From Prosthecobacter sp. (GTDB lineage: Bacteria; Verrucomicrobiota; Verrucomicrobiia; Verrucomicrobiales; Verrucomicrobiaceae): DNA of 64,000 bases. Of the stretch, positions 14,751 to 58,088 are shown piece after piece. The position numbers and the translations under genes are program-made. The stretch covers positions 1 through 64,000 of the forward strand of contig NZ_JACSRD010000118.1 in assembly GCF_014879935.1 (NCBI RefSeq), read 5' to 3'. Each line of letters begins with the position of its first letter. Positions within the stretch are counted from its first letter, which is position 1. The notes under the pieces were generated by a model that made no database searches, had not been told where the DNA came from, and saw nothing but the letters and a program-made list of their open reading frames with translations.

Positions 14751-14779
14751 TGTTGCGTTTCTCGACCACACGGGTATCG
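14751..14779 (+). promoter_or_regulatory. ECF-type promoter element before the FecR-TPR-barrel gene
   Basis: TGTTGC at 14751-14756, 15 bases, then GGGTATCG at 14772-14779, with the ATG at 14792. It is the most divergent member of the set (consensus TGTAAC-N15-GGGTATYC) but keeps the spacing and the distance to the start. Confidence 0.5.
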
Positions 14780-14791
14780 GCGACTACGACC

Positions 14792-17700
14792 ATGAAAATA
14801 CTCATCCGTTGCCTTGTTGCCTTATTGGGCTTTGCGGGAATTGTCGCCGGCCAGGAGGCCAGAATCGTCTCAGTCGAAAACAAGGTGGAAGCCGCGAAAA
14901 GTGCCGGTGCCTGGGCTGCCGCGCAGGCGGAGCAGCGGCTCGCCATCCAGGACCGCATCCGCACGCTACGCAAGAGCCGGGCCACCGTGCAGCTCACCGG
15001 GCTTTACAACATGCGCATGGAGCAGCTCACGACGGTGGAGATTTCCCCGTCGCTGCTGGATGACAGCAAGCCGCGGCTCGATCTCGGCGGCGGGGCGCTT
15101 TTCATCTTCAGCCGCGAGCAGAGCGGTGAGATCGACATCAAAACGCCCGCGGCGAACGGAGCGCTGCGCGGGACGCAGCTGTTTGTGAAAGTGGAAGGCG
15201 GAAAGGCCTTTTACCAGGTGCTCGAAGGGCGTGTGGATGTCAGCAATGCCCACGGGCGCGTGGAAATCAGCGCAGGCGAGGCGGCGGAGGCGGTCGCAGG
15301 CGCGGCACCACGCAAGACCGCCGTGCTGGAGGCGAAGAACATCCTGCAATGGGCGCTTTATTATCCCGCCGTGATCGATCCCGCAGAGCTTGAGGCTGCG
15401 AATGGGCAAGGTGATGCCTTGAAGGCCTCAAGGGCACTGCAGGCCTACACGGAAGGCGATTTGCTCGCGGCGTTGGAGTTGCCGAATGGCAGCTCGCTGG
15501 CTCTGGAGGCATCGGTTTTGCTCACGGTGGGCCGTTTGGACGAGGTGAGGCCGATTTTGGCGAAAATGCCGGTTTCGAGCCCTTTTCGCAAATCGCTCGA
15601 AAAACTCGTTTTGGCGGTCAACCACGAAAAAACGGCGAATTGGCCTCTCGAAGCCATTTCGACCGCTTCGGAGGCGATGGCGGAGAGTTATTACCGCCAA
15701 TCTCAGCATGACCTCGAAGGTGCACGCGAGGCGGCAAGGCTCGCGGTGAGGCTTTCGCCGCAGAATGGCTATGCGTGGACGCGACTCGGCGAGTTGGAGT
15801 TTTCTTTTGGCCGTGCGGCGCGTGCTTTGGAGGCGCTGGATAATGGTTTGAAGCTCACGCCGCGCAATGCGCAGGCACATGCGCTGCGTGGATTCGTGCT
15901 GAGTGCGCGGAATCGCATCACGGAGGCTCAGCAGGCCTTTGAAACGGCGACGAAGCTCGATGGCGCACTCGGCAATGGCTGGCTGGGGCTCGGTTTGACG
16001 AAGATCAAGCAAGGCCACCTCGCGGAAGGTCGCGCGGACCTGCAAACGGCGGCCACGGTGGAGCCGCTGATGTCGATTTATCACAGCTATCTCGGCAAGG
16101 CCTTCAGCGTGGAAGGTCGTCGTGATGATTCGGAGAAGGATCTGGCACTCGCGCAGCATCTCGACGCGAATGACCCGACGCCCTGGCTGTACAGCGCCAT
16201 CGAGAAGCAGCAGCAAAACCGCAGCAACGAAGCCATCGAGGATTTGCAGAAGTCGATCGACCTGAATGACAACCGCCGCGTGTATCGCAGCGAGTTCTTG
16301 CTCGATCAGGACAAATCCGTGCGCAGCGCGAACCTCGCGGCGATCTACCGCAACAACGGCATGGATGCCGTGGCGCTGCGCGAGGCCGCGCGTGCGGTGG
16401 ACAGCGATTTCACGAATGCGTCAGCGCATCTGTTCCTCGCGAACGCGTTTCACTCGCTGCGTGATCCACAGCGCATCGCTCTGCGCTATGAGACGCCGTG
16501 GTTCAATGAACTGCTGCTGGCGAACTTGCTCTCGCCAGTGGGCGGCGGGCCGCTTTCGCAATATGTGTCGCAGCAGGAGTATTCGAAGCTGCTGGAGGCG
16601 GACGGCATCGGCGCGAGCATCGCGGGCGAGTATCGCGGCACGGGCGAGTGGCGCAGCTCGGCATCCGTCTTCGGCACGCATGGAAACTGGAGCTGGGGCC
16701 TCGATTATTCGCTGCGGGACACGCACGGCACGCGCATCAACAACGAAGCGAGCATCCAGGAGCTCTACGCGCAGGTGAAGTGGCAGGCGACGAGCGATGA
16801 TACTTTCTACTTCCTCGGCAAAATGTCGAAACAGGAGAGCGGCGACACCTTTGAGACCTACAACAACACGCCGCTGGCTCCGGATCTCTTCTTTGATGAG
16901 AAACAGCAGCCTGGATTGCTGCTCGCAGGTTGGAATCACCGCTGGGGACCCGGCTCGCACACGCTGTTCCTCGCTGGTCGCCTCAGCGCGACACAGCGCC
17001 TGCGTGATCCGCGTGCGAATCAGCTCCTCATCGAGCGTGACTCGGCCGTTTTGAATCCTGCGGTGGTCACCACGGTCGGTTTCTTCAATGTGTTCTCAAA
17101 TCCAGCCTTTACCTCCACGCTCGGCGTGGATGGCGAGACGTTGATCCACTCGCCTGAGCTGGTGGCGGCGATGCAGCCCTTCCTTTATTCCGGCAATATT
17201 CTTGGCGTGAATGCCACGCCGTTTGATTTCCAGACGCGGCGTGAGTTTGAGATCTACACGGCGGAGATGATGCACATCCAGAAGATCAAGAACCACAACC
17301 TGCTGGCGGGTGTGCGTTATCAGGATGGCGAGTTCGAGACGACCTCGCGCCTGAGCGTGATCCGACCGAATTTTGCCGGTGGTTTTACCACGCCAGCCTT
17401 CCAGCAGACGGACGTGGTCGATTTCCAACGTCTGAGCCTCTATGCGTATGACTACTGGCAGCCGAAGCCGTGGCTCACGCTCATCGGCGGGGTGTCTTGG
17501 GACCGCATCGACCATCCGCTGAACTTCCGCAATCCGCCGACGAGCGGTGCGCAGACACAAAATGAACGCGTGTCGGCAAAGGCGGGCTTCATCTTGAATC
17601 CCTCGCGCTGGGTGCAGGTGCGCGGGGCCTTCACGCAGGGCCTCGGCGGCGTGACGTATGACGAGAGCGTGCGCCTAGAGCCGGTGCAGATCGCCGGTTT

Positions 17701-18403
17701 CAATCAAAGCTACCGCACGGTGATTTCCGAGAGCCTCGCGGGCTCGGTAGAGACGCCGCGTTTTCAAAACATCGGCCTGAGCATCGAAGGCATGCTGCCG
17801 ACGAAGACATGGTGGGGCCTCACCGGAAACATCATCGAGCAAGACGTGGATCGCGTGGTGGGCGCGTTCACGGGCTTCTCACCGGGCGTCTTCCCCATTG
17901 AGCCGGCGTATTTCCCGAGCAGCACGCGGCAGAGCCTGTCGTATCGCGAGCAGTCGCTGCAATTCACGCTCAACCAGCTCGTGGGCAAACGCTGGGCGCT
18001 CGGCGGCCTGTATCGCGTGACGGAATCCGAGCTGCGCACGACCATGCACGACCTCGCAGCCTTCGGTGCGGCGAATGGCGTGCTCACCGACCGCGCCACG
18101 CTGCATGAGCTCGGCCTATCCGCGAACTACAACTCCCCCCGCGGCTTTTTCGCCCGCATGGAGGCTAATTTTTATGCGCAGAGCCTTCGCGATGATCCGA
18201 ACTCCGGTGTCGGCCCCAGAGTTGGAGATCGCTTCTGGCAGTTCAACGCCTTCGCGGGTTATCGTTTCAACCGTAACCTCTGCGAATTCAGCGTCGGCGT
18301 GCTGAATCTGACCGATCAAAATTACCAACTCAGCCCGCTGAATCCGTGGTCGGACATTGCGAGAGAGAGGACGTTTGTGTTGAGGTTCCGGCTGAGTTTT
18401 TAA
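14792..18403 (+). CDS. FecR-TPR-beta-barrel outer-membrane protein
   Basis: The protein is 1,203 residues from the chosen start, where the Met at 14792 opens the signal peptide MKILIRCLVALLGFAGIVAG; an upstream ATG at 14717 only adds 25 residues. A FecR-like region spans about residues 25-180 (RTLRKSRATVQL, the LRGTQLFVKVEGGKAFYQVLEG strand pair, VEISAGEAAEAV). TPR repeats follow at about 290-530 (AWTRLGELEFSFGRAARALEAL and related). The last ~600 residues form a TonB-receptor-like barrel ending in the outer-membrane signature FVLRFRLSF. I see no plug domain or TonB box, so it is not a standard siderophore receptor. FecR domains normally relay signals to ECF sigma factors, which fits the ECF-type element upstream and the sigma gene at 58104, but that link is inference. 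A near-identical C-terminal remnant lies at 24087. Confidence 0.8.
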   Translation: MKILIRCLVALLGFAGIVAGQEARIVSVENKVEAAKSAGAWAAAQAEQRLAIQDRIRTLRKSRATVQLTGLYNMRMEQLTTVEISPSLLDDSKPRLDLGGGALFIFSREQSGEIDIKTPAANGALRGTQLFVKVEGGKAFYQVLEGRVDVSNAHGRVEISAGEAAEAVAGAAPRKTAVLEAKNILQWALYYPAVIDPAELEAANGQGDALKASRALQAYTEGDLLAALELPNGSSLALEASVLLTVGRLDEVRPILAKMPVSSPFRKSLEKLVLAVNHEKTANWPLEAISTASEAMAESYYRQSQHDLEGAREAARLAVRLSPQNGYAWTRLGELEFSFGRAARALEALDNGLKLTPRNAQAHALRGFVLSARNRITEAQQAFETATKLDGALGNGWLGLGLTKIKQGHLAEGRADLQTAATVEPLMSIYHSYLGKAFSVEGRRDDSEKDLALAQHLDANDPTPWLYSAIEKQQQNRSNEAIEDLQKSIDLNDNRRVYRSEFLLDQDKSVRSANLAAIYRNNGMDAVALREAARAVDSDFTNASAHLFLANAFHSLRDPQRIALRYETPWFNELLLANLLSPVGGGPLSQYVSQQEYSKLLEADGIGASIAGEYRGTGEWRSSASVFGTHGNWSWGLDYSLRDTHGTRINNEASIQELYAQVKWQATSDDTFYFLGKMSKQESGDTFETYNNTPLAPDLFFDEKQQPGLLLAGWNHRWGPGSHTLFLAGRLSATQRLRDPRANQLLIERDSAVLNPAVVTTVGFFNVFSNPAFTSTLGVDGETLIHSPELVAAMQPFLYSGNILGVNATPFDFQTRREFEIYTAEMMHIQKIKNHNLLAGVRYQDGEFETTSRLSVIRPNFAGGFTTPAFQQTDVVDFQRLSLYAYDYWQPKPWLTLIGGVSWDRIDHPLNFRNPPTSGAQTQNERVSAKAGFILNPSRWVQVRGAFTQGLGGVTYDESVRLEPVQIAGFNQSYRTVISESLAGSVETPRFQNIGLSIEGMLPTKTWWGLTGNIIEQDVDRVVGAFTGFSPGVFPIEPAYFPSSTRQSLSYREQSLQFTLNQLVGKRWALGGLYRVTESELRTTMHDLAAFGAANGVLTDRATLHELGLSANYNSPRGFFARMEANFYAQSLRDDPNSGVGPRVGDRFWQFNAFAGYRFNRNLCEFSVGVLNLTDQNYQLSPLNPWSDIARERTFVLRFRLSF

Positions 18404-18561
18404 CCGGTGCGTTTGTGGTTCTCGGGCCGAACGGCATCATTTCCGGACAGCAGCGCGTAGCTTGGGAGTTTTTCCTTCTCATCGTCTTTTGTCCCAGTCT
18501 CCGCGCGCGGTGCGCGTCTCATAGCGCGATGGTGATTTTCGCCACGTCGCACTAGTTGCAG

Positions 18562-18648
18562 TTAATCTCGCCTTCGCCCCAGAAGCGGGCGGGGAGGTTT
18601 GGATGTTTGAAGAAAGCGGGAACAGGTGGAATGCGGCTTCGTTTTCAT
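18562..18648 (-). CDS. possible 28-residue peptide behind the reverse ECF-type element
   Basis: An ATG at 18648 lies 22 bases after the reverse GGGTATCC box, the same distance seen for the other members of the set. It opens a 28-residue basic frame (MKTKPHSTCSRFLQTSK and on). No homology or ribosome-binding site supports it. It may be the leftover start of a deleted gene, or the element may drive an untranslated RNA. Confidence 0.2.
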   Translation of the reverse strand: MKTKPHSTCSRFLQTSKPPRPLLGRRRD

Positions 18649-18670
18649 GGGGGAAGAGCCTCCTGCCGCC

Positions 18671-18699
18671 GGATACCCGCGCGGGGCGGGTTTGTGACA
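18671..18699 (-). promoter_or_regulatory. reverse-facing ECF-type promoter element
   Basis: On the minus strand this reads TGTCAC (18699-18694), 15 bases, then GGGTATCC (18678-18671). Spacing and -10 are identical to the best plus-strand copies. No real gene is obvious downstream to the left. Confidence 0.45.
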
Positions 18700-18751
18700 A
18701 GATCGCCGAAAACCCGCCTCCAAACACCCGCTCCACTTTTTGCGCGGGATG

Positions 18752-18780
18752 TGTAACATGAGCGGATCGTCCGGGTATTC
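18752..18780 (+). promoter_or_regulatory. ECF-type promoter element before the GloVer-protease gene
   Basis: TGTAAC at 18752-18757, 15 bases, GGGTATTC at 18773-18780; the ATG at 18803 follows 22 bases later. An ATG at 18740 lies upstream of this element, so a transcript from here would exclude it, supporting the start at 18803. Confidence 0.6.
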
Positions 18781-18802
18781 ATCCAAGGAAACTCCTTCAT
18801 CC

Positions 18803-21800
18803 ATGTCCCTACTGTTACACCGCCCTCGTCTTCACGCTGCTGCCGCGTTGCTGGTGTTTTTGTGTTTGAGTAGTCCGATCGCCATGGCGCAGGTCTATGA
18901 GAAGGTGTTCGATTTCGGAATCGGTCGCAACCCTCTGGTCAAGCCTGTTGGTTTAGTCCAAGACAATGATGGACAGTTTTATGGCATCACAAGGGCGGGG
19001 ACTTTCTTCAGGATGACGCCTGGAGGAACCGTAACCAATTTGGGGGAGTTTAATAATGGCTATGGAATGACGGGACTTGTCAGGGCAAGTGACGGGAACC
19101 TTTACAGTACGCGCTTTGGGGAAGATATTGAAGGACAAAAAGGGGCTGTTTTCAAAATGACTCCGTTTGGCACTTTAACGCAGATAGCAGGATTTGCCGG
19201 GAACGGCCCTGCAAGCCTGGGGGAACATCCTGCGGCATCGTTGCTTCAAGTGGGCAGCTATTTTTTTGGAACGACTGTTTATGGTGGAACCTTCAACCAC
19301 GGCACGATCTTCAAAGTATCGCTAAACGGTGAGCTGAGCACGGTCATCGAGTTCACAGGCGGTGAATCGAACAACCGTGGCAGCCGCCCGGTCGCGGCCC
19401 TGGTTTTGGGCGATGATGGTAATCTTTACGGCACCACGACCCAAGGTGGCATCCATGGGGGCGGCACCGTCTTTAAAATGACGCCTTCAGGCACCTTGAC
19501 GACCTTGGTGGATTTTACTCATGACGAAGGTCCGAACAGGGGGAGCTGGCCGGGCGTTTTGGTTTCGGGCAGCGATGGAAACTTTTATGGTTTGACCCGC
19601 TACGGTAGCACTCTGGGTGGAGGCACCGTTTTCAAAATGACACCGTCCGGGGTGCTCACAACTTTGGCCGAATTTAGCGCTGAGTATGATCCAGACGAGG
19701 AGACGGGTTATGACACTTTTCCCGATTCACTAATCCAGGGCAGCGACGGGAATTTCTATGGAACGACAGAGACTGATAAAACAGAAGCAGGCGGGGATTT
19801 CGTCGGTGGCACCGTCTTCAAGATGACAGCATCTGGCGACCTGACAACGTTGGTGGAGTTCGACGACAGCGAGGTAACGGATCGTGACGATATTCATCTG
19901 CGCAACAGTTCCCTGATCCAAGGCAACGATGGCGCCTTTTACGGAACAACGGCGTTTGGGGGAGCGGCTGGCGACGGCGCCGTGTTCCGAGTTTCGGCTT
20001 CCGGGTTATTCTCGCACCTGGTGGAATTCGACGGCCCCGCGCAAACGCGCAGCCCGTCTTTTCCCAACGCGCTCACACAAGGGGATGACGGCCGTTTCTT
20101 TGGCACAACGGCTTATGGAGGATTGGGAAATCGTGGAACCGTCTTCGAATTGAAGACCACAGGCGAGTTGACCACCTTCGTCGAATTCGCTGGAAACGGT
20201 CCCGTGAACAATGGAAGCACGCCAATCGCCGCGCTCGTTCAGGGCCAGGACGGGAATTATTACGGGTCCACTGTCTATGGTGGCGCTTCTGAGGAACTGG
20301 ACATGCCCGCTTCCGGGCACGGCACGATTTTCAGAATGACGCCTTCAGGGGTCTTGACTACTCTGGTGAGTTTTACAGGTAGTGAAGGCACGAATAGAGG
20401 TTCTGCACCTGCCGCTGATCTGCTAAGAGACAATGACGGAAACTTCATAGGAGCGACCCAATCTGGCGGCGCTTATGGCCGCGGAACAGTTTTCAAGATG
20501 TCCCCGTCTGGGGGGATGACCACATTGGTGGACTTTTCCTTCACAAGTCCGAACAGAGGACGGGTGCCAAATGCACTCATATCGGGCAATGACGGCAATT
20601 TTTATGGCACTACGCGGGAAGGCGGTATTGGAGGCATCGGAAACGGAACTGTGTTTCGCATGACTCCTGGCGGGATACTGACCACCCTTGTGGAGTTCAC
20701 TTGGAACGTGCCGCCCTACAAGGGATCGCAACCCAACGCTCTGGTGCTCGGCAATGACGGCAATTTTTACGGTACCACCACCGGCGGGGGGATCGGAACA
20801 GACGGCGACTCCCGATCCGGCTATGGCACCGTTTTTCGAATGACGCCGGAGGGGGCGCTGACGACGCTGGTCGAGTTCACTTTAAACGGGCCGCTAAATA
20901 AAGGCTCGCAGCCAACCAAGCTCGTCCTTGCCGGTGACGGCCATTTCTACGGAACAACCACCTACGGGGGCTTTGGAAGCAATGAAGCTGCTGCCATTCC
21001 TGGCGCTCGTTTCACCGGTTACGGAACGCTTTTCAAAATGACGCATTCCGGGGAACTCACAACGATCTGGGAATTTTCCGGGGCGGAGGGGAATCCGTAT
21101 GTGGACCTTGTTGCCGGTGCGGACGGAAACCTCTACGGCACAACAGGCGGGCCTCATGGCACCATTTACCGCCTTGTCTTTCCTGGCGTTCCTTTGATCG
21201 GTCTAACGCAAGCCACACCTGCGCTAGGCGGTCATGTCCAGGTGAATGCGCGGGTCAATGCGCGCGGAACCTTCACTCAGGCGTCACTGGAATACGGCAA
21301 TGACGGCGTGAGTTTCCCTTTCACGATTCCACTGAGTCCGAACTTGAATGGTTTCCAAACTCAAACAGCTGGAACTTCGGTGGAGGGATTGAATCCTGGC
21401 GCAACCTACTTTTACCGCGTTCGTGCGCAAAGCATCCGAGGCACCGCAGTCAGCCCGGTGGGTAGTTTCTCCACTCTCGCGGCCCCGCTTTCAACTGTCA
21501 CACCTGCCACCGATCTCGCCCCCGCCAGCGCGCGTCTCAACGGCACGGTGAACGCTCGCAATTACGACGCCACGGTGCGCTTCGAGTGGGGCACGGATGG
21601 CAACACATTCCCAAATTCGGTCGCCGCCACGCCCGGCACCGTGACGGGGAACAGTGACGTTTCCGTCTCCGTTCCCGTGGCCGGTTTGACCAAAGGCACG
21701 ACGTATTATTTCCGCGTTGTGGCCACCAACGCGGGCGGCACGACCGTCAGCGGCACGCAGAGCTTTCGCACCTTGACGGAGCCCGCCGCGACCATCGGCG

Positions 21801-24025
21801 GGAACTTCGCGCTGACGACGACGAGCGTGCGCGTGGAGGGCAGTGTGAACGCGCAGGGCAGTGACAGCAGCGTGGTCTTTGAATATGGCACGGACGGCGT
21901 GAGCTTTCCGAACAGTGTCGCCGCCACGCCGGGCACGGTGAGCGGGGATGCCGGCACGCCGGTGTCCGCGGTGCTCACGACGCTGTCGCAAGGTGTGACG
22001 TATCACTACCGCATCCGGGCGACGAGCGCGGGCGGTGTGGGCACGAGTGCGAGCGCGAGTTTCTCCATGAATGTGCTCTCCGGCTTCGCGCAGGTGTTTC
22101 CAAACGCGCCGCCGGAATCGGAGGGCTTTTTGACGGTGAACCTCAGCACTGGGGGCATCTTGCACGGGTGGCGCTTCGTCGGCGAGCAGCAGTGGCGCTC
22201 ATCTGGCCTGCCGGTGGCCGGTTTGACGACCTCGAACCGGGAGATCGAATTCCGTCCGGTGCCTGGCTATGTGCAGCCGGAGCCGGAACCGGTGAGCATC
22301 CTCAGCGGCGAGGCTTCGGTTTATGCCTTTGAATACATCAGCGGGGGCAGCACGGGCAGCGGCAACATTCTCGTGACACTGAAGCCTTCCACTCTCGCGG
22401 AGGCGCAGTGGCGGCTGCTGGGCGAAACGGATGCGCAGTGGCGAAACAGCGACACAGCGCTCAACGGCCTGCCGCCGGGCAATTACCTCATCGAGTGCAA
22501 ACCGGTCGCTGGACGTGCCACGCCGCCGAATGTGAACGTTTCCGTCATCAACGGCCAAACGACCGCCGCGACGATCACCTACTTCCTGCCGGACGCGGCC
22601 ACAGGCACGCCGCCAGCGGTGCTTTCCTTTGAGAGCGTCTCCGTGGACACCACGCGGCCTTATGCGCATGTGGGGCAGTTTCGCAGCCAGGTCGGCAGCA
22701 GTAGTGGCTTCGTGGTGAAACCACGCGTCGTCGCCACGGCGGCGCATGTGGTGTGGGATGACGGCCGCGTGGTCGATAATGGCTCCGGTGGCTCGACGCT
22801 GGCCGCGGTGCAGGGGGTGCAGTGGCTCTTCCAAAGGTATCGCGGCGTGCATGAGCCCACGCCGGTCATTCCGCGCGGGTTTTACACCTTTGATGGCTAT
22901 GCGGCGCAGCGTGTGATCGACAACTCGCCCGGTGACTCCTCGCCCGCGTCACAGCACCTTGATGTGGCGGCGGTGTATTTCAGCACGAACGCGGGACGCG
23001 GTGGCTACAGCGGCTTTTTGGCGAGTGATCTGGCGCAAAATGAGTTCCTGCTCTCCAGTGCGAACAAAATGCTCGTCGGCTACCCGATGGATGGCATCAG
23101 CACCACGAGCCAAGGCCGCATGCACGCGACTTCGCCCTCCAATGTGGTCTTCAGCAGCTCTTTTGGCCGCACCTTCACCACGACGGGCATCCGCAGCAGC
23201 GGCGGAAACAGCGGTGGGCCGCTGTGCGTGCAGTTTGAAGGCGGCGCGTATTACCCGACGGCCATCTACCTCGGTGGAGACAATCAGACTGTCGTCCGCG
23301 CCATCGACAGCGAGGTGGTGGACCTTTTCAACCGTGCGGAGATCAGCAGCAACGGTGGAGACAACAACACCGGCGGCGGCATCACGCACACGAGCATCAG
23401 CGGCACCACCAGCAGCAGCACCGGCAGCGTGCAGATCCTCATCGAACCCGAAGCTGCGAGAAATGCAGGAGCAGGCTGGCGTCTCGGTGACAGCGGAAGC
23501 TACCGTGCAAACGGCGCGGTGCGCAGCAGCGTGACGCCAGGTAGCTACACCTTGAACATGATCGCAGTGGCTGGTTTTGACACGCCCACGTCACCCACCA
23601 TCACCGTGAGCGGCGGCCAACTCACCGCAGTGACCTACACCTACGCACCACTGATGAACCCGCAGGAAAGCTGGCGTCAAACTCACTTCAGCACCACCGC
23701 GAACACCGGCAACGCCGCCGACACCTTCGACTTCGACGGCGACGGGTTCACGAATGCGCAGGAATACGCCGCAGGGACGAATCCGACGCTCAGCGGTGAC
23801 TTCTTCAAGGTCACCGACAGCCAGCGCACCGCGTCCACCTTCACGTTGAGTACAGCAGGCAAGGCCGGACGCACCTACACGCTCCAGCGCAGCGTGAATT
23901 TGAGCTCCTGGACAGCCGTTGGCAGTCCGCAGGGACCGCTCGTCAGCGATGGGGCAGTCACTTTGCAAGATGCTGCGATGCCGAATGACGCGGCGTTTTA
24001 CCGGATTGTGGTCACGGGGCCGTAA
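18803..24025 (+). CDS. giant secreted GloVer-repeat serine protease
   Basis: The protein is about 1,740 residues. The start at 18803 is preferred because it opens the signal peptide (MSLLLHRPRLHAAAALLVFL) behind the promoter element. Residues ~33-793 hold about 14 GloVer tandem repeats (DGNFYGTT, then GTVFKMTPSG, then LTTLVEF), likely a beta-propeller-like array. Three Ig/FN3-like domains follow (~796-1090), then the tail shared by four proteins here: a WRFVGEQQW beta repeat, a second QWRLLGE repeat, and a trypsin-like domain with His1315 (TAAHVV), Asp1387 (LDVAAV) and Ser1470 (GNSGGP). A third WRL repeat, a calcium-binding DFDGDGFTNAQEYAAGTNP loop and a conserved end DAAFYRIVVTGP complete it. 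It is probably exported and surface-bound or released. Its role is unknown; it could process host, prey or self surface proteins. Confidence 0.8.
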   Translation: MSLLLHRPRLHAAAALLVFLCLSSPIAMAQVYEKVFDFGIGRNPLVKPVGLVQDNDGQFYGITRAGTFFRMTPGGTVTNLGEFNNGYGMTGLVRASDGNLYSTRFGEDIEGQKGAVFKMTPFGTLTQIAGFAGNGPASLGEHPAASLLQVGSYFFGTTVYGGTFNHGTIFKVSLNGELSTVIEFTGGESNNRGSRPVAALVLGDDGNLYGTTTQGGIHGGGTVFKMTPSGTLTTLVDFTHDEGPNRGSWPGVLVSGSDGNFYGLTRYGSTLGGGTVFKMTPSGVLTTLAEFSAEYDPDEETGYDTFPDSLIQGSDGNFYGTTETDKTEAGGDFVGGTVFKMTASGDLTTLVEFDDSEVTDRDDIHLRNSSLIQGNDGAFYGTTAFGGAAGDGAVFRVSASGLFSHLVEFDGPAQTRSPSFPNALTQGDDGRFFGTTAYGGLGNRGTVFELKTTGELTTFVEFAGNGPVNNGSTPIAALVQGQDGNYYGSTVYGGASEELDMPASGHGTIFRMTPSGVLTTLVSFTGSEGTNRGSAPAADLLRDNDGNFIGATQSGGAYGRGTVFKMSPSGGMTTLVDFSFTSPNRGRVPNALISGNDGNFYGTTREGGIGGIGNGTVFRMTPGGILTTLVEFTWNVPPYKGSQPNALVLGNDGNFYGTTTGGGIGTDGDSRSGYGTVFRMTPEGALTTLVEFTLNGPLNKGSQPTKLVLAGDGHFYGTTTYGGFGSNEAAAIPGARFTGYGTLFKMTHSGELTTIWEFSGAEGNPYVDLVAGADGNLYGTTGGPHGTIYRLVFPGVPLIGLTQATPALGGHVQVNARVNARGTFTQASLEYGNDGVSFPFTIPLSPNLNGFQTQTAGTSVEGLNPGATYFYRVRAQSIRGTAVSPVGSFSTLAAPLSTVTPATDLAPASARLNGTVNARNYDATVRFEWGTDGNTFPNSVAATPGTVTGNSDVSVSVPVAGLTKGTTYYFRVVATNAGGTTVSGTQSFRTLTEPAATIGGNFALTTTSVRVEGSVNAQGSDSSVVFEYGTDGVSFPNSVAATPGTVSGDAGTPVSAVLTTLSQGVTYHYRIRATSAGGVGTSASASFSMNVLSGFAQVFPNAPPESEGFLTVNLSTGGILHGWRFVGEQQWRSSGLPVAGLTTSNREIEFRPVPGYVQPEPEPVSILSGEASVYAFEYISGGSTGSGNILVTLKPSTLAEAQWRLLGETDAQWRNSDTALNGLPPGNYLIECKPVAGRATPPNVNVSVINGQTTAATITYFLPDAATGTPPAVLSFESVSVDTTRPYAHVGQFRSQVGSSSGFVVKPRVVATAAHVVWDDGRVVDNGSGGSTLAAVQGVQWLFQRYRGVHEPTPVIPRGFYTFDGYAAQRVIDNSPGDSSPASQHLDVAAVYFSTNAGRGGYSGFLASDLAQNEFLLSSANKMLVGYPMDGISTTSQGRMHATSPSNVVFSSSFGRTFTTTGIRSSGGNSGGPLCVQFEGGAYYPTAIYLGGDNQTVVRAIDSEVVDLFNRAEISSNGGDNNTGGGITHTSISGTTSSSTGSVQILIEPEAARNAGAGWRLGDSGSYRANGAVRSSVTPGSYTLNMIAVAGFDTPTSPTITVSGGQLTAVTYTYAPLMNPQESWRQTHFSTTANTGNAADTFDFDGDGFTNAQEYAAGTNPTLSGDFFKVTDSQRTASTFTLSTAGKAGRTYTLQRSVNLSSWTAVGSPQGPLVSDGAVTLQDAAMPNDAAFYRIVVTGP

Positions 24026-24086
24026 AACACTGTTAGTGAACAGCCAGGGAAGTGAGGCTGTTTAGCAGATTTCCGCCCCCTGCGGC

Positions 24087-24266
24087 GGCGACAGCTTCTG
24101 GCAGTTCAACGCCTTCGCGGGTTATCGTTTCCATCGCAACCTGTGCGAAGTGAGCGCTGGCGTACTGAACCTCACGGATCAAAACTACCAGCTCAGCCCG
24201 CTCAATCCGTGGTCCGACATCGCGAGGGAGCGGACGTTTGTGGTCCGGTTCCGGCTGAGTTTCTGA
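24087..24266 (+). pseudogene. 3' remnant of a FecR-TPR-barrel gene
   Basis: Fifty-nine codons plus TGA match the end of the barrel gene at 14792-18403, from FWQFNAFAGYRF through NLTDQNYQLSPLNPWSD to VVRFRLSF, with 54 of 59 residues identical by eye. The reading frame has no start and is only the last two or three barrel strands, so it cannot work alone. It sits just before the next protease gene, as the full barrel gene sits before the first one. It is therefore the scar of a duplicated barrel-protease unit. Confidence 0.85.
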
Positions 24267-24309
24267 AGCAGAGGGCGAGGGGGCTCAGGGGGTGCAGAGG
24301 CGGAGCCAT

Positions 24310-24356: not shown

Positions 24357-24424
24357 ATCGTGTGACCCGGAGCCAGCAGCAAAGCTTGACGCTCAATGAC
24401 TGGTAAGCTGCAATAAGCGGTTGT

Positions 24425-24453
24425 CGTAACAATCCGCCGCCGCACGGGTATTC
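24425..24453 (+). promoter_or_regulatory. ECF-type promoter element before the leader peptide and second protease
   Basis: CGTAAC at 24425-24430, 15 bases, GGGTATTC at 24446-24453. The first ATG after it is at 24480 (26 bases on), opening a 35-residue frame that overlaps the start of the large gene. Confidence 0.6.
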
Positions 24454-24479: not shown

Positions 24480-24587
24480 ATGAACACGCTTCGTCCGCTT
24501 CTCCTCGCCTGCCTCGGGCTTCTTTATTGCGCGATGTCACTTCACGCCGCGCCTGAGGACTTGCATCCAACCCACCATAATCCATGA
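24480..24587 (+). CDS. 35-residue orphan signal-peptide ORF coupled to the next gene
   Basis: The frame encodes a near-perfect signal peptide (TLRPLLLACLGLLYCAMSLHA) and then only about 12 residues before TGA. The residues after the cleavage site (APEDL) resemble the mature start of the delta-60 proteins (APGELD, APGDLD). The stop overlaps the next start as ATGA at 24584-24587. It is either a coupling leader peptide or the stump of an earlier protein whose body was replaced by the gene that follows. Its position right behind the promoter element makes translation likely. Confidence 0.5.
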   Translation: MNTLRPLLLACLGLLYCAMSLHAAPEDLHPTHHNP

Positions 24588-34545: not shown

Positions 34546-34574
34546 TGTTACAAATCCTCCTGAGTAGGGTATCC
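34546..34574 (+). promoter_or_regulatory. ECF-type promoter element before the 5,563-residue gene
   Basis: TGTTAC at 34546-34551, 15 bases, GGGTATCC at 34567-34574. The first ATG is at 34609. Confidence 0.6.
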
Positions 34575-51300: not shown

Positions 51301-51314
51301 CAAGCTGGGTATCC
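51285..51314 (+). promoter_or_regulatory. ECF-type promoter element before the S74 gene
   Basis: AGTAAC at 51285-51290, 16 bases, GGGTATCC at 51307-51314. The -35 half overlaps the last codons of the preceding giant gene; the ATG is at 51347. Confidence 0.55.
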
Positions 51315-51346
51315 GGCTGCAAACACCTCCCGTTCCATTTTTCCTC

Positions 51347-54085
51347 ATGAAAAAGACGCTCCTTCTCCTTGTTGGCTGGTTTGGCATCGCATCCTCCCTC
51401 ATTGCACAAGTGCCTGGCCTCATGAACTATCAGGGCCGTGTCACCGTGAACGGCACTGGCTTCACCGGCACCGGCCAGTTTAAGTTCGCGCTCGTGAACA
51501 CGGACGGCAGCACCACTTACTGGAGCAATGACGGCACTAGCACCGCCGGATCCCAGCCCACCGCGGCCGTTTCACTGCCGGTGAGCAATGGCGTCTATTC
51601 GCTGCTGCTGGGCGATACCGCGCTCGCCAACATGACCGCCGTCCCGGCCAGCGTGTTCACGAATCCGGACGTGCGCCTGCGCGTGTGGTTCAACGACGGC
51701 ACCAACGGCTGGAACCTGCTCTCCCCGGACCAGCGCCTCGCCAGCACCGGCTACGCCTTCATGGCCGCCACCGTCGCCGACGGTACCGTCACCAGCACCA
51801 AGCTCGCCACCGGCCTCACCCTCAGCGGCACGGCCACCTTGAGCGGCGGATTGAGCCTGCCCGCCACTTCCAGTGCCAGTGTAGGCACGATCACCCAGGG
51901 CGGCGCATCGCTCCTGCACACCTACGGCAGCGGAAACACCTTCACGGGCATCAGCGCGGGCAATTTCACGCTCACCGGCTCCGACAATGCCGCCACGGGC
52001 AGCAATGCACTGGCCGCACTCACGACGGGCAGCAGCAACACCGCATTTGGCCGCTCTGCGCTCTTCAGCAACCAGACTGGATCTCAAAACACCGCTGTGG
52101 GCTCCAGCGCTCTCTACTCAAACACGTCTGGCGGCAACAACACGGTGCTCGGGAATCAAGCGCTCTACAACAACACGGTCTCGAACAACGTGGCTGTCGG
52201 TAACATGGCCCTTTTCAGCAACACCACGGGCACTCCCAACACAGCCATTGGCACCAATGCGCTGTATTCAAACACAACCGGAACATCAAACATCGCCATC
52301 GGGCAAACCGCTCTCTACTCCAACACCACAGCTACCCAGAACGTAGCGGTGGGACTGCGGGCCTTGTTCACAAACAACACAGGCAACTACAACACCGCCA
52401 TCGGCTCCTATGCGCTTGAAATGAATGCTTCAGGCTCCAGCAACATCGCCGTCGGTCGCTGGGCGATGAACAGCAACGCAACGGGTGGCTCGAATACGGC
52501 GGTTGGCATGGGGGCGCTCTTCACCAACAACGCGGACAACAACACGGCGGTCGGGCATGAGGCTTTGTATTCGAATGCTTCGGCGATAAACAACACCGCC
52601 GTTGGGAAAGGAGCCCTCCGCACCAATCTGGGGGCCAACAACACGGCCTTGGGCACGATTGCGCTGTTTGCGAACACCACCGGCACCAACAACGTCGCCA
52701 TCGGCTATGATGCATTGTCCGCCAACCAGTCGGGTGCTGGCAGCGTGGCCGTCGGTGTGCAGGCGCTCAATGCGAACACCGTCGGCGGCAGCACCGCCGT
52801 GGGTCTTTATGCGCTCCGGGTCAACACCACCGGGCAATACAACGCCGCATTCGGGCACCAGGCGCTCCAGGCCAACACGACAGGCGCCAACAACACCGCC
52901 ATCGGCAAAAACGCGCTCGCCTCAAACACCACCGCCTCTGCGAATTCGGCGCTGGGAACGGATGCCCTCCTGTCCAACACCACCGGCACCGGCAATGTGG
53001 CGGCTGGCTTTGAGGCTCTCTCCTCCAACATCACTGGAAGCTTTAACTCCGCTGTGGGATATCAGGCGCTGGACGCCAACACCACGAGCAACAACACCGC
53101 TTTCGGATATCAGGCGCTGAAAATGAACACGGGCGGATCTGGCAACTCGGCCGTGGCCGGAGGCGCGTTGTTTAGCAACACGACAGGTGCCGACAACAGC
53201 GCTTTTGGTTTCAACGCTCTCTACAACAACAGCTCCGGGGGGCAAAACTCGGCTTTTGGCCGTGATGCTCTCAATGCCACCACAAACGGCAGCAACAACA
53301 CGGCGATCGGCTTCCGGGCACTCGCAGCAAATACCACGGCTTCTGATAATGTCGCCATCGGAAACCAGGCGTTATATGCCAACACCTTAGGTGGAGGTAA
53401 CACAGCTGTCGGCTTGAACGCACTTGACTCCACCACCACAGGAGGAGGCAATATCGCGCTCGGGTATAATGCAGGCCAGAATCTCACCACGGGCAATTTT
53501 AACATCTACATCGGCAACGAGGGGGTCGCTGCAGAAGCGAATAACATTCGCATCGGTAACGCTAGCGCACACTTTAAAGCCTTCATCGCCGGCATTTCCG
53601 GCGTGACGAGCAGCGGCGGGGCGCAGGTGTTTGTCAATTCGTCGGGCCAGCTTGGCACGGCGACGTCGTCGCGTCGGTTCAAGCATGACATCGTGGACAT
53701 GGGGGCAGCCAGCGAGACGATTTTGCGGATGAGGCCGGTGGCCTTCCGCTACCATGCGGAGCTGGACCCGAACCAGTTGCCGCAGTTTGGCCTGATCGCG
53801 GAAGAGGTGGCGGAAATCGACCCGCTGCTCGTCGTGCGCGATGAAAACGGCGGCATCCAGTCGGTGCGCTATGAGCAGGTGAACGCGATGCTGCTGAACG
53901 AGTTCCTCAAGGACCATCGCCGGGCCGAAACTCGCGATGCGGAGGTGGAGGCGATGAAAAAGCAGCTTCAGGAGCTCGAAGCCCGCGACGCGGCGCACAC
54001 GCAGCGCGAGCGCGAGCTCGAAGAACGGCTCAAAAAGCTCGAAGAGGCCCTTTCCCGCGGTTCCAGCAGCGAAACGAAGCTCTGA
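51347..54085 (+). CDS. YadA-head-like repeat protein with peptidase S74 chaperone domain
   Basis: The 912-residue protein has a signal peptide (MKKTLLLLVGWFGIASSLIA), then a ~130-residue beta domain (VPGLMNYQGRVTVNG, later LSPDQRLASTGYAFMAAT) found at the start of many verrucomicrobial secreted proteins. From about 200 to 730 there are roughly 35 repeats of ~14-16 residues (NTAVG-SALYSNTTG type), like left-handed beta-roll heads of trimeric adhesins. Residues ~774-870 are a peptidase S74/endosialidase chaperone (SSRRFKHDI, then FGLIAEEVAEIDP), which trimerises the protein and usually cuts itself off at the Ser of this motif. A coiled coil closes it. It is likely a trimeric surface fibre, regulated with its neighbours through the upstream element. 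Confidence 0.85.
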   Translation: MKKTLLLLVGWFGIASSLIAQVPGLMNYQGRVTVNGTGFTGTGQFKFALVNTDGSTTYWSNDGTSTAGSQPTAAVSLPVSNGVYSLLLGDTALANMTAVPASVFTNPDVRLRVWFNDGTNGWNLLSPDQRLASTGYAFMAATVADGTVTSTKLATGLTLSGTATLSGGLSLPATSSASVGTITQGGASLLHTYGSGNTFTGISAGNFTLTGSDNAATGSNALAALTTGSSNTAFGRSALFSNQTGSQNTAVGSSALYSNTSGGNNTVLGNQALYNNTVSNNVAVGNMALFSNTTGTPNTAIGTNALYSNTTGTSNIAIGQTALYSNTTATQNVAVGLRALFTNNTGNYNTAIGSYALEMNASGSSNIAVGRWAMNSNATGGSNTAVGMGALFTNNADNNTAVGHEALYSNASAINNTAVGKGALRTNLGANNTALGTIALFANTTGTNNVAIGYDALSANQSGAGSVAVGVQALNANTVGGSTAVGLYALRVNTTGQYNAAFGHQALQANTTGANNTAIGKNALASNTTASANSALGTDALLSNTTGTGNVAAGFEALSSNITGSFNSAVGYQALDANTTSNNTAFGYQALKMNTGGSGNSAVAGGALFSNTTGADNSAFGFNALYNNSSGGQNSAFGRDALNATTNGSNNTAIGFRALAANTTASDNVAIGNQALYANTLGGGNTAVGLNALDSTTTGGGNIALGYNAGQNLTTGNFNIYIGNEGVAAEANNIRIGNASAHFKAFIAGISGVTSSGGAQVFVNSSGQLGTATSSRRFKHDIVDMGAASETILRMRPVAFRYHAELDPNQLPQFGLIAEEVAEIDPLLVVRDENGGIQSVRYEQVNAMLLNEFLKDHRRAETRDAEVEAMKKQLQELEARDAAHTQRERELEERLKKLEEALSRGSSSETKL

Positions 54086-54120
54086 CCTTTTCCGCCATGA
54101 AGCCCCGCGCCACCGCCAGG

Positions 54121-54240
54121 AAAGCAGCCATCTCGCTCCGTCGAGATGAGCCGCTGACTGCCGCAGCGTGGGACAGTTCGAGCATACCTGATGGCTCGCG
54201 AGCGCACTGTGCTCATCTCGCGGAGCGAGATGGCTACTTT
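54121..54240. repeat. MITE-like inverted repeat
   Basis: Near-perfect arms of about 30 bases face each other: 54121-54151 and 54211-54240, differing by one extra T and one mismatch, with 59 bases between. Each arm is itself partly palindromic (CATCTCG/CGAGATG). It looks like a small non-autonomous mobile or REP-type element. It carries an open frame only by chance, so the ATG at 54097 in front of it is probably not a real start. Confidence 0.7.
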
Positions 54241-54308
54241 GCTTCGCGGCATCGCGAATGCCCATTCGGTGAATCACACCGGGAGGGGGCGTTTTGGCCT
54301 TCGGTTTG

Positions 54309-54388
54309 GCCGCAGAGAGGCGGAGGAGCAGAGGGGGCAGAGTTTTATGAAATGCTCTGCGCTCTCTACCTCTTTGCTCCTCTGCGGC
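54309..54388. repeat. hairpin repeat with GCAGAG arms
   Basis: Two 34-base arms (54309-54342 and 54355-54388), 24 of 34 positions pairing by eye, enclose the loop TTTTATGAAATG. The family resembles the copy at 31097. The ATG at 54352 that can open the next gene lies in its loop. Confidence 0.6.
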
Positions 54389-57300
54389 TGAATCGAGCCT
54401 TTGTGATGCTGCTTTCGCTCTTCGCGTTCTCCGCGCAGGCAGCGGTGCGCAGTGGCGGGCCGTATGAGGTGCAGAATGAGGCGGTCGGGATCGCGGGCGG
54501 CAGCGCCGCAGGCGGTGTTTACGGCCATGAGATGGCCCTGGGAGGCGTGGCGGGCGTTTCGAGCGTCTCGGGCGTGGTTTCGGCGCAGGGTTACATCGCG
54601 CAGAAGGTGCCGCTCACCGGTCCGGAGGTCGTGCTGGGGCTGCCGACGGGCTTTTCGACGGTGGACATGACCTTGAACGGCTATGTGAACCCGCGCGGGC
54701 TGGCGACGACGGCCGTCTTCGAATACGGCACGACCACCAGCTACGGCAGCAGCGCCAGCGTGACCTTGAGCCCGAACAACGGCACCAGCACACAAAGCGT
54801 GAGCGCGGTGCTGCCGGGCCTGGCGGTGAACACCGTGTATCACTACCGTCTCAGCGCCACGAACGCCGAGGGCACGAACCGCACCGACGACGGCACCTTC
54901 ATCGTCACCATCACCGCGCAAGCACCAGTCGTGACCGCGCAGGCAGCCTCTGAAGTCGGCATCGACAGCGCCAAACTCAACGGCCAGGTCAATCCCAACG
55001 GTTACGCCGCCACCAGCAGCTTCGAGATCAGCACCAATGGCACGAGCTGGACGCCCATCGCCGCGCAGCCCAGTCCGTTGACCGGATCGGTCGCCGTGGG
55101 CGTCATCGCCACGGCCACGGGCCTGCTGCCCAACACGACTTATCAATGCCGCCTGCGCTCCACCAACGCCGCAGGCACCAGCACGAGCAGCGTGATCACC
55201 TTTGCCACGAATCCGGACCCGCCCGGAGTCATCGCAGCCAATCCCACCAGCATCAGCGCCACGAGCGCGACACTGGCAGGCAGCGTGCTGCCGAAAAACC
55301 GCGCCACGACGGTGTGGTTCGAATACGGCACGAGCACGGCCTACGGCACGAACACGCCCGTGCAGAACATTCCTGTCGGCAGCGCCGCGGTGGATGTCAC
55401 CGCCCCCATCAGCGGCCTCACGAGTGGCGTCACCTACCACTACCGCATGGTCGCTGCGAACATCGGCGGCACCGTGCCGGGCTCGAACGTGAGTTTTGTG
55501 CCCGTGAGCGGCATCACACCGACTGCCGCGCCGAGTGTGACCTCCGGCAGCGCCTTTGTCATGTCACTCGATCTCGTGCTGGTGATCGGCACGGTGAATC
55601 CCAATGGCGGCCCCACCACGCTGCGTTGCGAATACGGCACCACGCCCGCGCTCGGCAGCCAGACGGTGGCCACGCCCGCAGGCAACACGAACACCACACA
55701 GCTCGCACTTGTTTCCATCGAGAGTCTGCTGCCGGGCACGCAGTATCACTACCGCCTCGTCGCGCAGAACAGCCTCGGCACCACCGCCAGCGCCATTTCG
55801 ACTTTTACCAGCGCCTACCCGCCGCCGGAGGCCGTCACCGGCAGCAGCACCGCGCTCAGCACGACGAGTGTGCAGGTGCTGGGCAGCGTGCGGGCGCGCC
55901 ACGCGGCCACGCAGGTGTTTTTCGACTACGGCACGGACGGCACCACCTTCCCGAACAGTCTCAGCGCCGTCCCCGCGGTCCTCAGCAGCGACGTGATGGA
56001 AAACGTGAGCGCCACGCTGACGAATCTCCAGCAAGGCACGACCTACTACTACCGCGTGCGTGCCGTGAGCAGCGGCGGCACGACCACCGGACTCACCTCT
56101 TCATTCCAGGTATCGCTCCTCTCCGGCCTGCTGCGTCAGTCGCCCACTGCGCCTCCGTCCGCCGCAGGCACGCTGACGGTGAACCTCACGCCCGCGAATC
56201 TGCTCACCGGCTGGCGTTTCGTCGGCGAGCAAAGCTGGCGCGCATCCGGCTCCACCGCGACCGGTTTGACCACCCGGGATCGCGAGATCGAGTTCCGACC
56301 GGTGCCGGGGCATATTCATCCGCCAGGAGAACTGATCGCCTCCTCCGAGACGGACATCACTCGTGATTACTACGACACCTCCACCAGCGGCAGCGGCGGC
56401 TTGATTGTCCTGGTGAAGCCCGCCGGGATCACCACCGGTGCCAATCGCGCCCAGTGGCGGCTCCTTGGGGAAAGCGATGCGCAGTGGCGTGACAGCAGCG
56501 ACCTCTATAGCGGCCTCGTGCCTGGAAGCTACCTCATCGAGTGCAAACCGGTTCCAGGACGTGCCACGCCGCCGAACACCAACGTGATCATCAGCGACGG
56601 CCAGACCGCCGCGCCCACGATCACCTACTTCCTCGCCGACTCGTCGAGCGGCGCGGCGCCGTCTCCGCTGAGCTTTGCCAGCATCAGCACGGACACGGCG
56701 CAGCCCTCCGCGCATGTGGGCCAGCTCCGCAGCGATGCCGGTGTCAGCAGCGGCTTCGTGGTGAAACCGCGTGTCATCGCCACCGCGGCGCATGTCGTGT
56801 GGGATGATGGCACGCTGAGCACGGTCAAAGGCCTGCAGTGGCTGTTTCAACGCCACGCCGCCGTGCACGAGCCGCGCCCGATCACACCGCGTGGTTTTTA
56901 TCTCTTCGATGGTTACGCCGCGCAGCGCGTGATCGACAATTCTCCCGGTGATTCGACGCCGCAGTCCCAAAATCTCGATGTCGCGGCGATTTACCTCAAC
57001 GAAACGGCCGCACGCGACGGCTTCAGCGGCTACCTCGCGAGTGATCTGGCCCAAAACGAGCACCTGCTCTCCAGCGCCGACAAAATGCTCGTCGGTTATC
57101 CCGTCGATGGCATCGCACCCGCCTTCCAAGGCATCATGCATGCCACCACGGCGTTCAATGTCGTCTTCACTGCCGGCTACGGCCGCACCTTCACCACCAC
57201 CGGCATCCGCAGCAGCGGGGGTAACAGCGGCGGCCCGCTCTGCGTGCGCCACACGAACGGCGCGTGGTATCCCACCGCGGTGTATCTCGGCGGCAACAAC

Positions 57301-58035
57301 CAGACCGTCGTGCGAGCGATCGACAGCAGCGTGATCGAACTCTTCACGCGTGCCGAGGTCAGCGGCAACGGCGGAGCCGACAACACCGGCGGCGGCATCA
57401 CGCAGACGAGCTACACCACGATCGCCAGCGGCAGTGCAGGTGCGTTGAAAGTGATCATCGAGCCCTCGGGCGCTCGCAATGCCGGCGCAGGCTGGCGACT
57501 TTCCCCCGAGAGCACTTATCGCGCGAGCGGAGCCACGAAATCCGCTCTCAGTCCCGGCAGCTACGTGATTCAATTCACCACCGTGGCCGACTTCGACGCG
57601 TCCGCGCAACAAAACGTCATCGTCACCGCAGGCCAGCTCAATAGCGTGACCTTCACCTATGCCACACCTCAGGAAAGCTGGCGTCAGGCGCACTTCAGCA
57701 CCACCGCCAACACTGGCAACGCAGCCGATAACGCCGATCCCGACGGAGACGGCTTCACCAATGCCGCCGAATACGCCGCAGGCACGAACCCGACCCTCAG
57801 TGGCGACTTCCTCAAGGCCACCGCCCCCGCCCGCAGCGGAGAAACCTTCACTCTCAGCACCGCAGGCAAAGCCGGACGCACTTACTATCTCGAACGCAGC
57901 AACAATCTGACCACCTGGTTCACCGTCACGTCCGACGGTCCCGTCAGTGCGGATGGCCAAGTCACCCTGACCGACCCTTCGATCACCGGAGGCGCGGCCT
58001 TCTACCGCATCCGCGTCACCGGGCCTGCGAATTGA
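54352..58035 (+). CDS. secreted Ig/FN3-repeat serine protease (smallest of the family)
   Basis: The protein is about 1,227 residues from the chosen start. The frame is open back to an ATG at 54097, but that part is made of two repeat elements. The export signal (LNRAFVMLLSLFAFSAQA) is reached from ATG 54352, or tightly from 54406, so the start is uncertain. Five Ig/FN3-like domains follow (nt 54640-56110; FEYGTTTSYG motifs) with no propeller in front. The shared tail then has complete triad residues His814 (TAAHVV), Asp876 (LDVAAI) and Ser959 (GNSGGP), counted from 54352. The calcium loop reads DPDGDGFTNAAEYAAGTNP and the end is FYRIRVTGPAN. No ECF-type element lies in front; it may be read through from the S74 gene, 12 bases before the 54097 ATG. 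Confidence 0.75.
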   Translation: MLCALYLFAPLRLNRAFVMLLSLFAFSAQAAVRSGGPYEVQNEAVGIAGGSAAGGVYGHEMALGGVAGVSSVSGVVSAQGYIAQKVPLTGPEVVLGLPTGFSTVDMTLNGYVNPRGLATTAVFEYGTTTSYGSSASVTLSPNNGTSTQSVSAVLPGLAVNTVYHYRLSATNAEGTNRTDDGTFIVTITAQAPVVTAQAASEVGIDSAKLNGQVNPNGYAATSSFEISTNGTSWTPIAAQPSPLTGSVAVGVIATATGLLPNTTYQCRLRSTNAAGTSTSSVITFATNPDPPGVIAANPTSISATSATLAGSVLPKNRATTVWFEYGTSTAYGTNTPVQNIPVGSAAVDVTAPISGLTSGVTYHYRMVAANIGGTVPGSNVSFVPVSGITPTAAPSVTSGSAFVMSLDLVLVIGTVNPNGGPTTLRCEYGTTPALGSQTVATPAGNTNTTQLALVSIESLLPGTQYHYRLVAQNSLGTTASAISTFTSAYPPPEAVTGSSTALSTTSVQVLGSVRARHAATQVFFDYGTDGTTFPNSLSAVPAVLSSDVMENVSATLTNLQQGTTYYYRVRAVSSGGTTTGLTSSFQVSLLSGLLRQSPTAPPSAAGTLTVNLTPANLLTGWRFVGEQSWRASGSTATGLTTRDREIEFRPVPGHIHPPGELIASSETDITRDYYDTSTSGSGGLIVLVKPAGITTGANRAQWRLLGESDAQWRDSSDLYSGLVPGSYLIECKPVPGRATPPNTNVIISDGQTAAPTITYFLADSSSGAAPSPLSFASISTDTAQPSAHVGQLRSDAGVSSGFVVKPRVIATAAHVVWDDGTLSTVKGLQWLFQRHAAVHEPRPITPRGFYLFDGYAAQRVIDNSPGDSTPQSQNLDVAAIYLNETAARDGFSGYLASDLAQNEHLLSSADKMLVGYPVDGIAPAFQGIMHATTAFNVVFTAGYGRTFTTTGIRSSGGNSGGPLCVRHTNGAWYPTAVYLGGNNQTVVRAIDSSVIELFTRAEVSGNGGADNTGGGITQTSYTTIASGSAGALKVIIEPSGARNAGAGWRLSPESTYRASGATKSALSPGSYVIQFTTVADFDASAQQNVIVTAGQLNSVTFTYATPQESWRQAHFSTTANTGNAADNADPDGDGFTNAAEYAAGTNPTLSGDFLKATAPARSGETFTLSTAGKAGRTYYLERSNNLTTWFTVTSDGPVSADGQVTLTDPSITGGAAFYRIRVTGPAN

Positions 58036-58059
58036 GAGGACTATTTTTTCACCCCGTTC

Positions 58060-58088
58060 TGTAGCGATATGAAGCCGCGCGGGTATCC
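58060..58088 (+). promoter_or_regulatory. ECF-type promoter element before the sigma factor gene
   Basis: TGTAGC at 58060-58065, 15 bases, GGGTATCC at 58081-58088, with the ATG at 58104. The same element as at the giant genes stands in front of the only sigma factor in the window, suggesting autoregulation. Confidence 0.6.

What the first reader, a model, noticed from the sequence alone, without database searches (positions are those of the whole stretch)
14751..58088. Repeated ECF-type promoter element links the giant secreted proteins to the sigma factor in the same locus
TGTAAC-N15-GGGTATYC (one copy N16) lies 21-42 bases (from the start of GGGTAT) before the first ATG at 14792, 18803, 24480, 34609, 51347 and 58104. 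The copies are 14751-14779, 18752-18780, 24425-24453, 34546-34574, 51285-51314 and 58060-58088. The spacing and the GGGTAT core hardly change while flanking sequence does. The sixth site is in front of the ECF sigma gene itself. This suggests an autoregulated regulon for a family of surface or secreted proteases, an S74 fibre and a FecR-barrel. The set was collected by eye, so further copies may exist.
Basis: partly seen in the sequence, partly recalled or inferred. Interest (0 to 1): 0.88.

Follow-up and report, generated by a model that had tools for sequence, protein, structure and literature searches.

The report
Shared promoter of giant exported proteins
A repeated two-block promoter sits in front of a regulatory gene and the giant exported proteins beside it, and the same element recurs before related genes scattered through other bacterial genomes, so it very likely marks a real, self-activating gene set.

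Summary
GGGTAT is in all six copies, but exact TGTAAC in only one; the working motif is TGTAACA-N14-GGGTAWYC. All four exact genome hits of GTWRC-N15-GGGTATYC lie in this window. In relative G015 the motif precedes scattered genes: FecR-barrel, giants, a sigma, the 59012 ortholog. The two closest sigma orthologs both carry it before their own start, and it clusters around related sigma genes. Best reading: autoregulated promoter of a kinase-linked ECF sigma factor. "Proteases" is not supported; the 24480 ATG opens a 35-aa ORF, not the giant gene. FecR-barrel, CHASE2-cyclase, 59012-like protein and giants form an older verrucomicrobial module to which the sigma, a kinase domain and the motif seem added. 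No transcript data exist.

The parts
14751..14779 (+). weak promoter copy TGTTGC-N15-GGGTATCG, 12 nt before ATG 14792
   Evidence: relatives-only score 14.9, chance level. The G015 ortholog has a strong copy (29.0) 8 nt before its first in-frame ATG, about 128 nt before a second, more signal-peptide-like start; G040 and G008 orthologs have none
   Evidence: score 26.2
18752..18780 (+). promoter copy, 22 nt before ATG 18803
   Evidence: score 28.3
24425..24453 (+). promoter copy, 26 nt before ATG 24480 (35-aa ORF) and 130 nt before the giant ATG 24584
   Evidence: score 26.0
   Evidence: score 20.4; not conserved before kinase orthologs of G040, G008, G015
34546..34574 (+). promoter copy, 34 nt before ATG 34609
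   Evidence: score 22.0
51285..51314 (+). weak promoter copy with N16, 32 nt before ATG 51347
   Evidence: score 12.6, chance level; a moderate site (18.4, first matrix) precedes an S74-type gene in G057
58060..58088 (+). promoter copy, 15 nt before the sigma gene
   Evidence: score 22.0; same element before the G040 ortholog
14792..18403 (+). FecR + TPR + TonB-receptor-like barrel protein, 1203 aa
   Evidence: 41 named loci encode relatives
18803..24025 (+). giant GloVer-repeat / fn3-like / TSP3 protein, 1740 aa
24480..24587 (+). 35-aa signal-peptide-like ORF (by eye) overlapping the next start as ATGA
24584..31066 (+). giant delta-60 (DUF5122) / GloVer protein, 2160 aa
31288..34335 (+). Ser/Thr kinase + CHASE2 + nucleotide cyclase, 1015 aa
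34609..51300 (+). giant 5563-aa protein (DUF5122, LamG, FG-GAP, RCC1, fn3-like, TSP3)
   Evidence: scanned in two halves
51347..54085 (+). 912-aa protein with S74 chaperone domain
54097..58035 (+). 1312-aa fn3-like/TSP3 protein starting 11 nt after the previous gene; no motif of its own, probably co-transcribed (inference)
58104..58862 (+). ECF-type sigma factor, 252 aa
59012..60061 (+). 349-aa protein of unknown family; no motif here, motif 10 nt before its G015 ortholog

Best explanation
The element is the -35/-10 promoter of an ECF sigma factor encoded at 58104-58862. The sigma reads TGTAACA(A), then (C)GGGTAWYC about 14-15 nt further on, and starts transcription shortly before its own gene, the giant repeat proteins, the FecR-TPR-barrel and the kinase/CHASE2/cyclase: a self-amplifying regulon. 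Shown by sequence: the element, its orientation and position, its confinement to this locus in this genome, its recurrence before related genes in relatives.
For: A matrix from relatives only recovers six window sites above every one of 100 simulations. All four exact genome hits lie here. G015: 22 hits with up to 2 mismatches against 7 control; by my reading 16 of 22 precede module or small genes: FecR-barrel 1, giants 7, kinase-like ORF 1, sigma 1 (247 nt upstream, behind a 63-aa ORF), 59012 ortholog 1, small genes 5, on contigs C1-C5. The sigma genes of G000 and of its 77% ortholog in G040 have the two blocks 15 and 10 nt before the ATG, with a different spacer. Sites >=17 lie within 16 kb of 10 of 15 sigma homologs scoring >=228 bits (9 in the same stretch, 1 in the adjoining one) against 1 of 19 weaker ones (that one shares its site with a close homolog); Fisher p 0.0002, loci taken as independent. 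On the sigma tree the label needs 5 changes, shuffled mean 8.8, 2 of 500 shuffles as low; one clade of 5 (support 88/63) has it 5 of 5. Of these rows only the window's own sites helped to build that matrix. Several copies end 8-34 nt before an ATG, leaving little room for another promoter. AAC, present in the first block of 15 of the 18 matrix sites, is the ECF -35 hallmark given in PMC8103513 (passages).
Against: No expression data. The second block is GGGTAWYC, not the CGT that the same review gives as typical -10. Kinase genes of G040, G008 and G015 and FecR-barrel genes of G040 and G008 have no copy. In G008 and G040 the loose pattern shows no excess (5 against 7 and 2 against 3 control hits). 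G015 and G008 have no sigma as close as G040's (best 58% and 55%), although they carry the motif and kinase and FecR-barrel orthologs; the sigma may be unassembled, or a more distant paralog may read the element. Five of the 15 close sigma homologs (G014:C9, G036 two, G008:C7, G045) have no site nearby; the G053 site points away from its sigma, and the sites of G018 and G000:C41 lie 6-15 kb off. Giant GloVer genes in G000 contigs C194, C237 and C42 have no site >=13. In three of the seven G015 giants and the kinase-like ORF the long frame starts 131-242 nt after the element.
Confidence: 0.76

Rival explanations
1. The element is the binding site of a transcription factor (two GTAAC/GTAWC half-sites 22 bp apart, about two helical turns), not a sigma-factor promoter; another promoter lies nearby.
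For: The blocks can be read as direct repeats, most clearly in the TGTAACA..GGGTAACC copies. Small genes with the element in G015 include a helix-turn-helix-like protein (HTH_31 24.2 bits, below its cut-off of 27).
Against: Copies end as little as 8-12 nt before an ATG; strand is consistent; spacing is 15 with one 16; it clusters with related sigma genes on the tree.
Confidence: 0.13
2. It is an ECF promoter, but read by another of the genome's many sigma paralogs rather than by the one in this locus, or by several of them.
For: G000 has at least 28 matches to this sigma (28 is the number scored). A similar site (TGTAACA..CCGGTATCT, 20.4) lies before a giant gene beside the C41 paralog. G015 and G008 carry the motif without a sigma as close as G040's.
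Against: The element sits directly before this sigma gene in both G000 and G040, and 0 of 18 distant homologs with a locus of their own have a site >=17 nearby.
Confidence: 0.2
3. Chance repeats collected by eye.
For: Two of the six copies (14751, 51285) score at chance level by a relatives-only matrix.
Confidence: 0.01

Closest known systems
ECF43 sigma factors with a Hanks-type kinase (EcfP/PknT, EcfK/PknS; PMC13147305 and PMC8103513, passages)
   Same: ECF sigma genetically linked to a Ser/Thr kinase; in this sigma family 16 of 34 homologs examined lie within 250 bp of a kinase frame, two of the 16 as overlapping open frames
   Different: ECF43 replaces the acidic DxxD motif of region 2.2 by uncharged residues, one of which is phosphorylated; here both acidic residues are kept in 16 of 17 aligned members. 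The window kinase also carries CHASE2 and a cyclase and lies 24 kb from the sigma.
FecI-FecR-FecA signalling (recalled)
   Same: ECF sigma, a FecR domain and a TonB-receptor-like barrel in one locus
   Different: FecR and barrel are one polypeptide with TPRs between them; no separate FecR anti-sigma gene was found beside the sigma among the genes scanned
FecR / CHASE2 pairs such as the Burkholderia BiofilmReg operon (PMC5192318, passages)
   Same: a FecR-domain protein encoded next to a CHASE2 sensor
   Different: there LysM-FecR with a CHASE2 histidine kinase and a response regulator; here FecR-TPR-barrel with CHASE2-cyclase, and no response regulator seen in the window genes scanned

Membership tests
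ECF sigma factor | regions sigma2 and sigma4 present | tested here: inconclusive
   NCBIfam sigma70-ECF 39.2 bits, E 5e-10, below its 42.9 cut-off; Pfam Sigma70_r2 16.5 bits, below 24; Sigma70_r2 in 12 of 17 and Sigma70_r4_2 in 2 of 17 homologs at E<=0.01; the profile of 17 homologs matches a solved SigH over profile positions 16-172 at E 7e-4, and region 4 of other sigmas only weakly, E 0.4-0.6. Likely, not formal.
ECF promoter | AAC in the -35 block | tested here: met
   15 of 18 matrix sites from relatives; 3 of the 7 plus-strand window sites, the others TAC, AGC or TGC
ECF promoter | CGT in the -10 block | tested here: not met
   GGGTAWYC: GGT, not CGT
ECF promoter | transcription starts at the element and needs the sigma | not testable with these tools
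   needs RNA data
autoregulated sigma | own promoter carries the target motif | tested here: met
   G000 (15 nt), G040 (10 nt), G015:C1 (247 nt, behind a 63-aa ORF); not met in other close homologs
ECF43 (kinase-activated sigma) | uncharged replacement of DxxD in region 2.2 | tested here: not met
   D..D kept in 16 of 17 members
ECF43 (kinase-activated sigma) | kinase gene beside the sigma gene | tested here: met
   16 of 34 homologs within 250 bp; in the window in the same locus but 24 kb away
FecI-FecR-FecA | separate FecR anti-sigma and TonB receptor | tested here: not met
   FecR domain and barrel in one polypeptide; the gene after the sigma has no FecR hit

The most novel reading that the evidence does not exclude
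A verrucomicrobial sigma family with up to 28 or more members in one genome uses near-private promoter codes: each sigma, often beside its own kinase, reads an element found mainly before itself and its own giant exported proteins, so that surface architectures are switched as separate sets. Here the set was coupled to an older outer-membrane FecR-barrel / CHASE2-cyclase sensor by fusing a kinase domain onto the cyclase.
Probability: 0.25. Interest if true: 0.72.

Novelty: new variant of a known kind. Interest (0 to 1): 0.56.

Why it matters
It gives a testable promoter code for an expanded, kinase-linked sigma family and for giant exported proteins whose control is, to my knowledge, undescribed, and it ties them to a sensor module with relatives in 41 named verrucomicrobial loci. 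The element lets one list candidate regulon members from sequence alone. A search for TGTAAC together with ECF sigma gave four papers (listing only, none opened), and searches on Verrucomicrobia, kinases and ECF sigma factors (listings, with passages of two papers read) showed none that names this element; the library lacks most subscription journals, among them the ECF reclassification paper.

Tried and rejected
Exact TGTAAC with N14-17: one hit only, too strict. Upstream scan of 30 sigma homologs without turning minus-strand loci wrongly suggested that the G040 sigma lacks the motif; repeated with the correct strand. First scan of genome contigs with the sigma found no relative. While checking this report I found that the G015:C1:1287724 site, which I had taken to precede a kinase, precedes a 63-aa ORF and then a sigma gene; counts were mended, odds left as they were. 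Gene 59012 as an anti-sigma linked to the sigma: relatives in 12 of 96 genomes, and in G015 it lies on another contig than the two closest sigma homologs listed; not pursued. A TGTAAC..GGGTAT element before FecR-barrel genes elsewhere: of 41 named loci, sites >=15 (first matrix) occur in six; the records of G040 and G015 score above 20, the other four 15.1-16.4. Of the 41, 19 upstream regions were printed and read by eye: none has the element, eight share another stretch (TTTCGCCTTGTT or similar). Duplication as origin of the copies.
Full report
OBSERVATION. GGGTATYC occurs six times in the window against 1.12 expected. In the 7.74-Mb genome the four exact matches to GTWRC-N15-GGGTATYC are all in this window; with one mismatch the total is 18 (8 in this contig, 10 elsewhere) against 21 for the backward control, so matches elsewhere are background.

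INDEPENDENT TEST. From 18 sites in other genomes I built a matrix without any window site. It ranks six window sites first (28.3 to 20.4); in 100 simulated windows the best score was 17.8. The 14751 and 51285 copies (14.9 and 12.6) are at chance level by score. Their support is position and orthologs: a strong site before the G015 FecR-barrel frame (29.0 by the first matrix, which that site helped to build) and a moderate one (18.4, first matrix) before an S74-type gene in G057.

GENES. 14792-18403 encodes a FecR-TPR-barrel; 18803, 24584, 34609 and 54097 encode giant or large proteins with GloVer, delta-60, RCC1, FG-GAP or fn3-like parts; 51347 has an S74 chaperone domain; 31288 encodes kinase + CHASE2 + cyclase. 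Apart from S74 no peptidase family was found in them. The ATG at 24480 opens a 35-aa ORF that overlaps the start of the giant ORF.

RELATIVES. G040 keeps the order kinase, giant, sigma, 59012-like gene, with the element 10 nt before its sigma and a copy (21.7) 69 nt before the first start codon of its giant. In G015 the genes are scattered, yet by my reading 16 of 22 hits with up to two mismatches (7 control hits) precede the FecR-barrel, seven giants, a kinase-like ORF, a sigma gene, the 59012 ortholog and five small genes; the other six were not assigned. In four of the seven giants the element ends 22-26 nt before the ATG; in the other three the long frame starts 141-242 nt on. Two of the small genes encode a helix-turn-helix-like protein. 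Scattered genes with one element argue for a regulon rather than a local repeat. Against this: G008 and G040 show no excess of the loose pattern over control, kinase genes in G040, G008 and G015 and FecR-barrel genes in G040 and G008 have no copy, and three GloVer giants elsewhere in G000 have none.

WHICH SIGMA. G000 has at least 28 matches to this sigma. Among 34 homologs with sequence at hand, sites >=17 lie within 16 kb of 10 of 15 close ones (one of the ten in an adjoining stretch) and 1 of 19 distant ones, the latter sharing its site with a close one. G014:C231 was fetched because of a motif hit, so that row is not blind. On the tree the label is clustered (5 changes, shuffled mean 8.8, 2 of 500 as low), and a clade of five, with moderate support 88/63, has it throughout. 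A different clade has another element, TGTTCAA-N12-TTGAGNATT, before its sigma gene in five of seven genomes searched. Across 96 genomes GTWACA-N14-GGGTAWCC has 14 hits against 3 control hits, 8 of them in G015; 4 of the 6 genomes with a hit are among the 11 with a sigma >=225 bits, Fisher p 0.0013 with related genomes taken as independent.

MODULE. The FecR-barrel has relatives in 41 named verrucomicrobial loci (two patterns, so not exhaustive). In 27 of 41 a neighbour matches the window kinase/CHASE2/cyclase protein with at least 280 bits, in 17 a 59012-like protein is present, and in 13 a giant scores at least 300 bits. The two such cyclases that I scanned (L256, L280) have CHASE2 and cyclase but no kinase domain, whereas those of G040 and the window have one and those of G008 and G015 align from residue 26 or earlier, kinase domain included. 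Only the G040 record shows a homolog of this sigma, and only the G040 and G015 records a strong motif, within flanks of at most 10 kb. So sigma, kinase domain and element look like a later addition in the window's lineage (inference).

MECHANISM. Shown: element, orientation, position and co-occurrence. Inferred: the sigma recognises it, transcripts start just downstream, the kinase controls the sigma, and the FecR-barrel and CHASE2 parts sense the outside. Both acidic residues of region 2.2 are kept in 16 of 17 homologs, so the ECF43 phospho-switch described in print (passages) is not the expected route.

VERDICT. A sound observation with a largely right interpretation; a new variant of kinase-linked ECF regulation, of moderate to good interest, awaiting transcript data.

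Noticed in passing
24075-24263: A stranded 63-aa copy, 87% identical to the C-terminus of the FecR-barrel, lies after the 18803 gene.
   Followed up: partly
24480-24587: 35-aa signal-peptide-like ORF overlapping the giant start as ATGA; by eye it resembles the displaced 5' end of another giant gene.
   Followed up: no
18671-18780; G015 C4:79-186, C1:78778-78886, C1:2648007-2648194: Divergent promoter pairs, about 80 bp apart in three cases and 159 in the fourth; in G015 one arm drives a small gene, in the window only a 28-aa ORF follows.
   Followed up: partly
L294-L298 (G033, G017, G018, G042, G034): Palindrome-like element TGTTCAA-N12-TTGAGNATT before another clade's sigma gene; in four of these five genomes it is the only hit with up to one mismatch.
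   Followed up: partly
L253-L293: FecR-barrel, CHASE2-cyclase, 59012-like protein and giant-protein module across Verrucomicrobiota.
   Followed up: partly
L255, L258, L260, L261, L267, L271, L281, L286: A shared stretch (TTTCGCCTTGTT or similar) upstream of the FecR-barrel gene, seen by eye.
   Followed up: no
8291-13063 (-): 1590-aa protein with PATR passenger repeats on the other strand; no motif before it.
   Followed up: no
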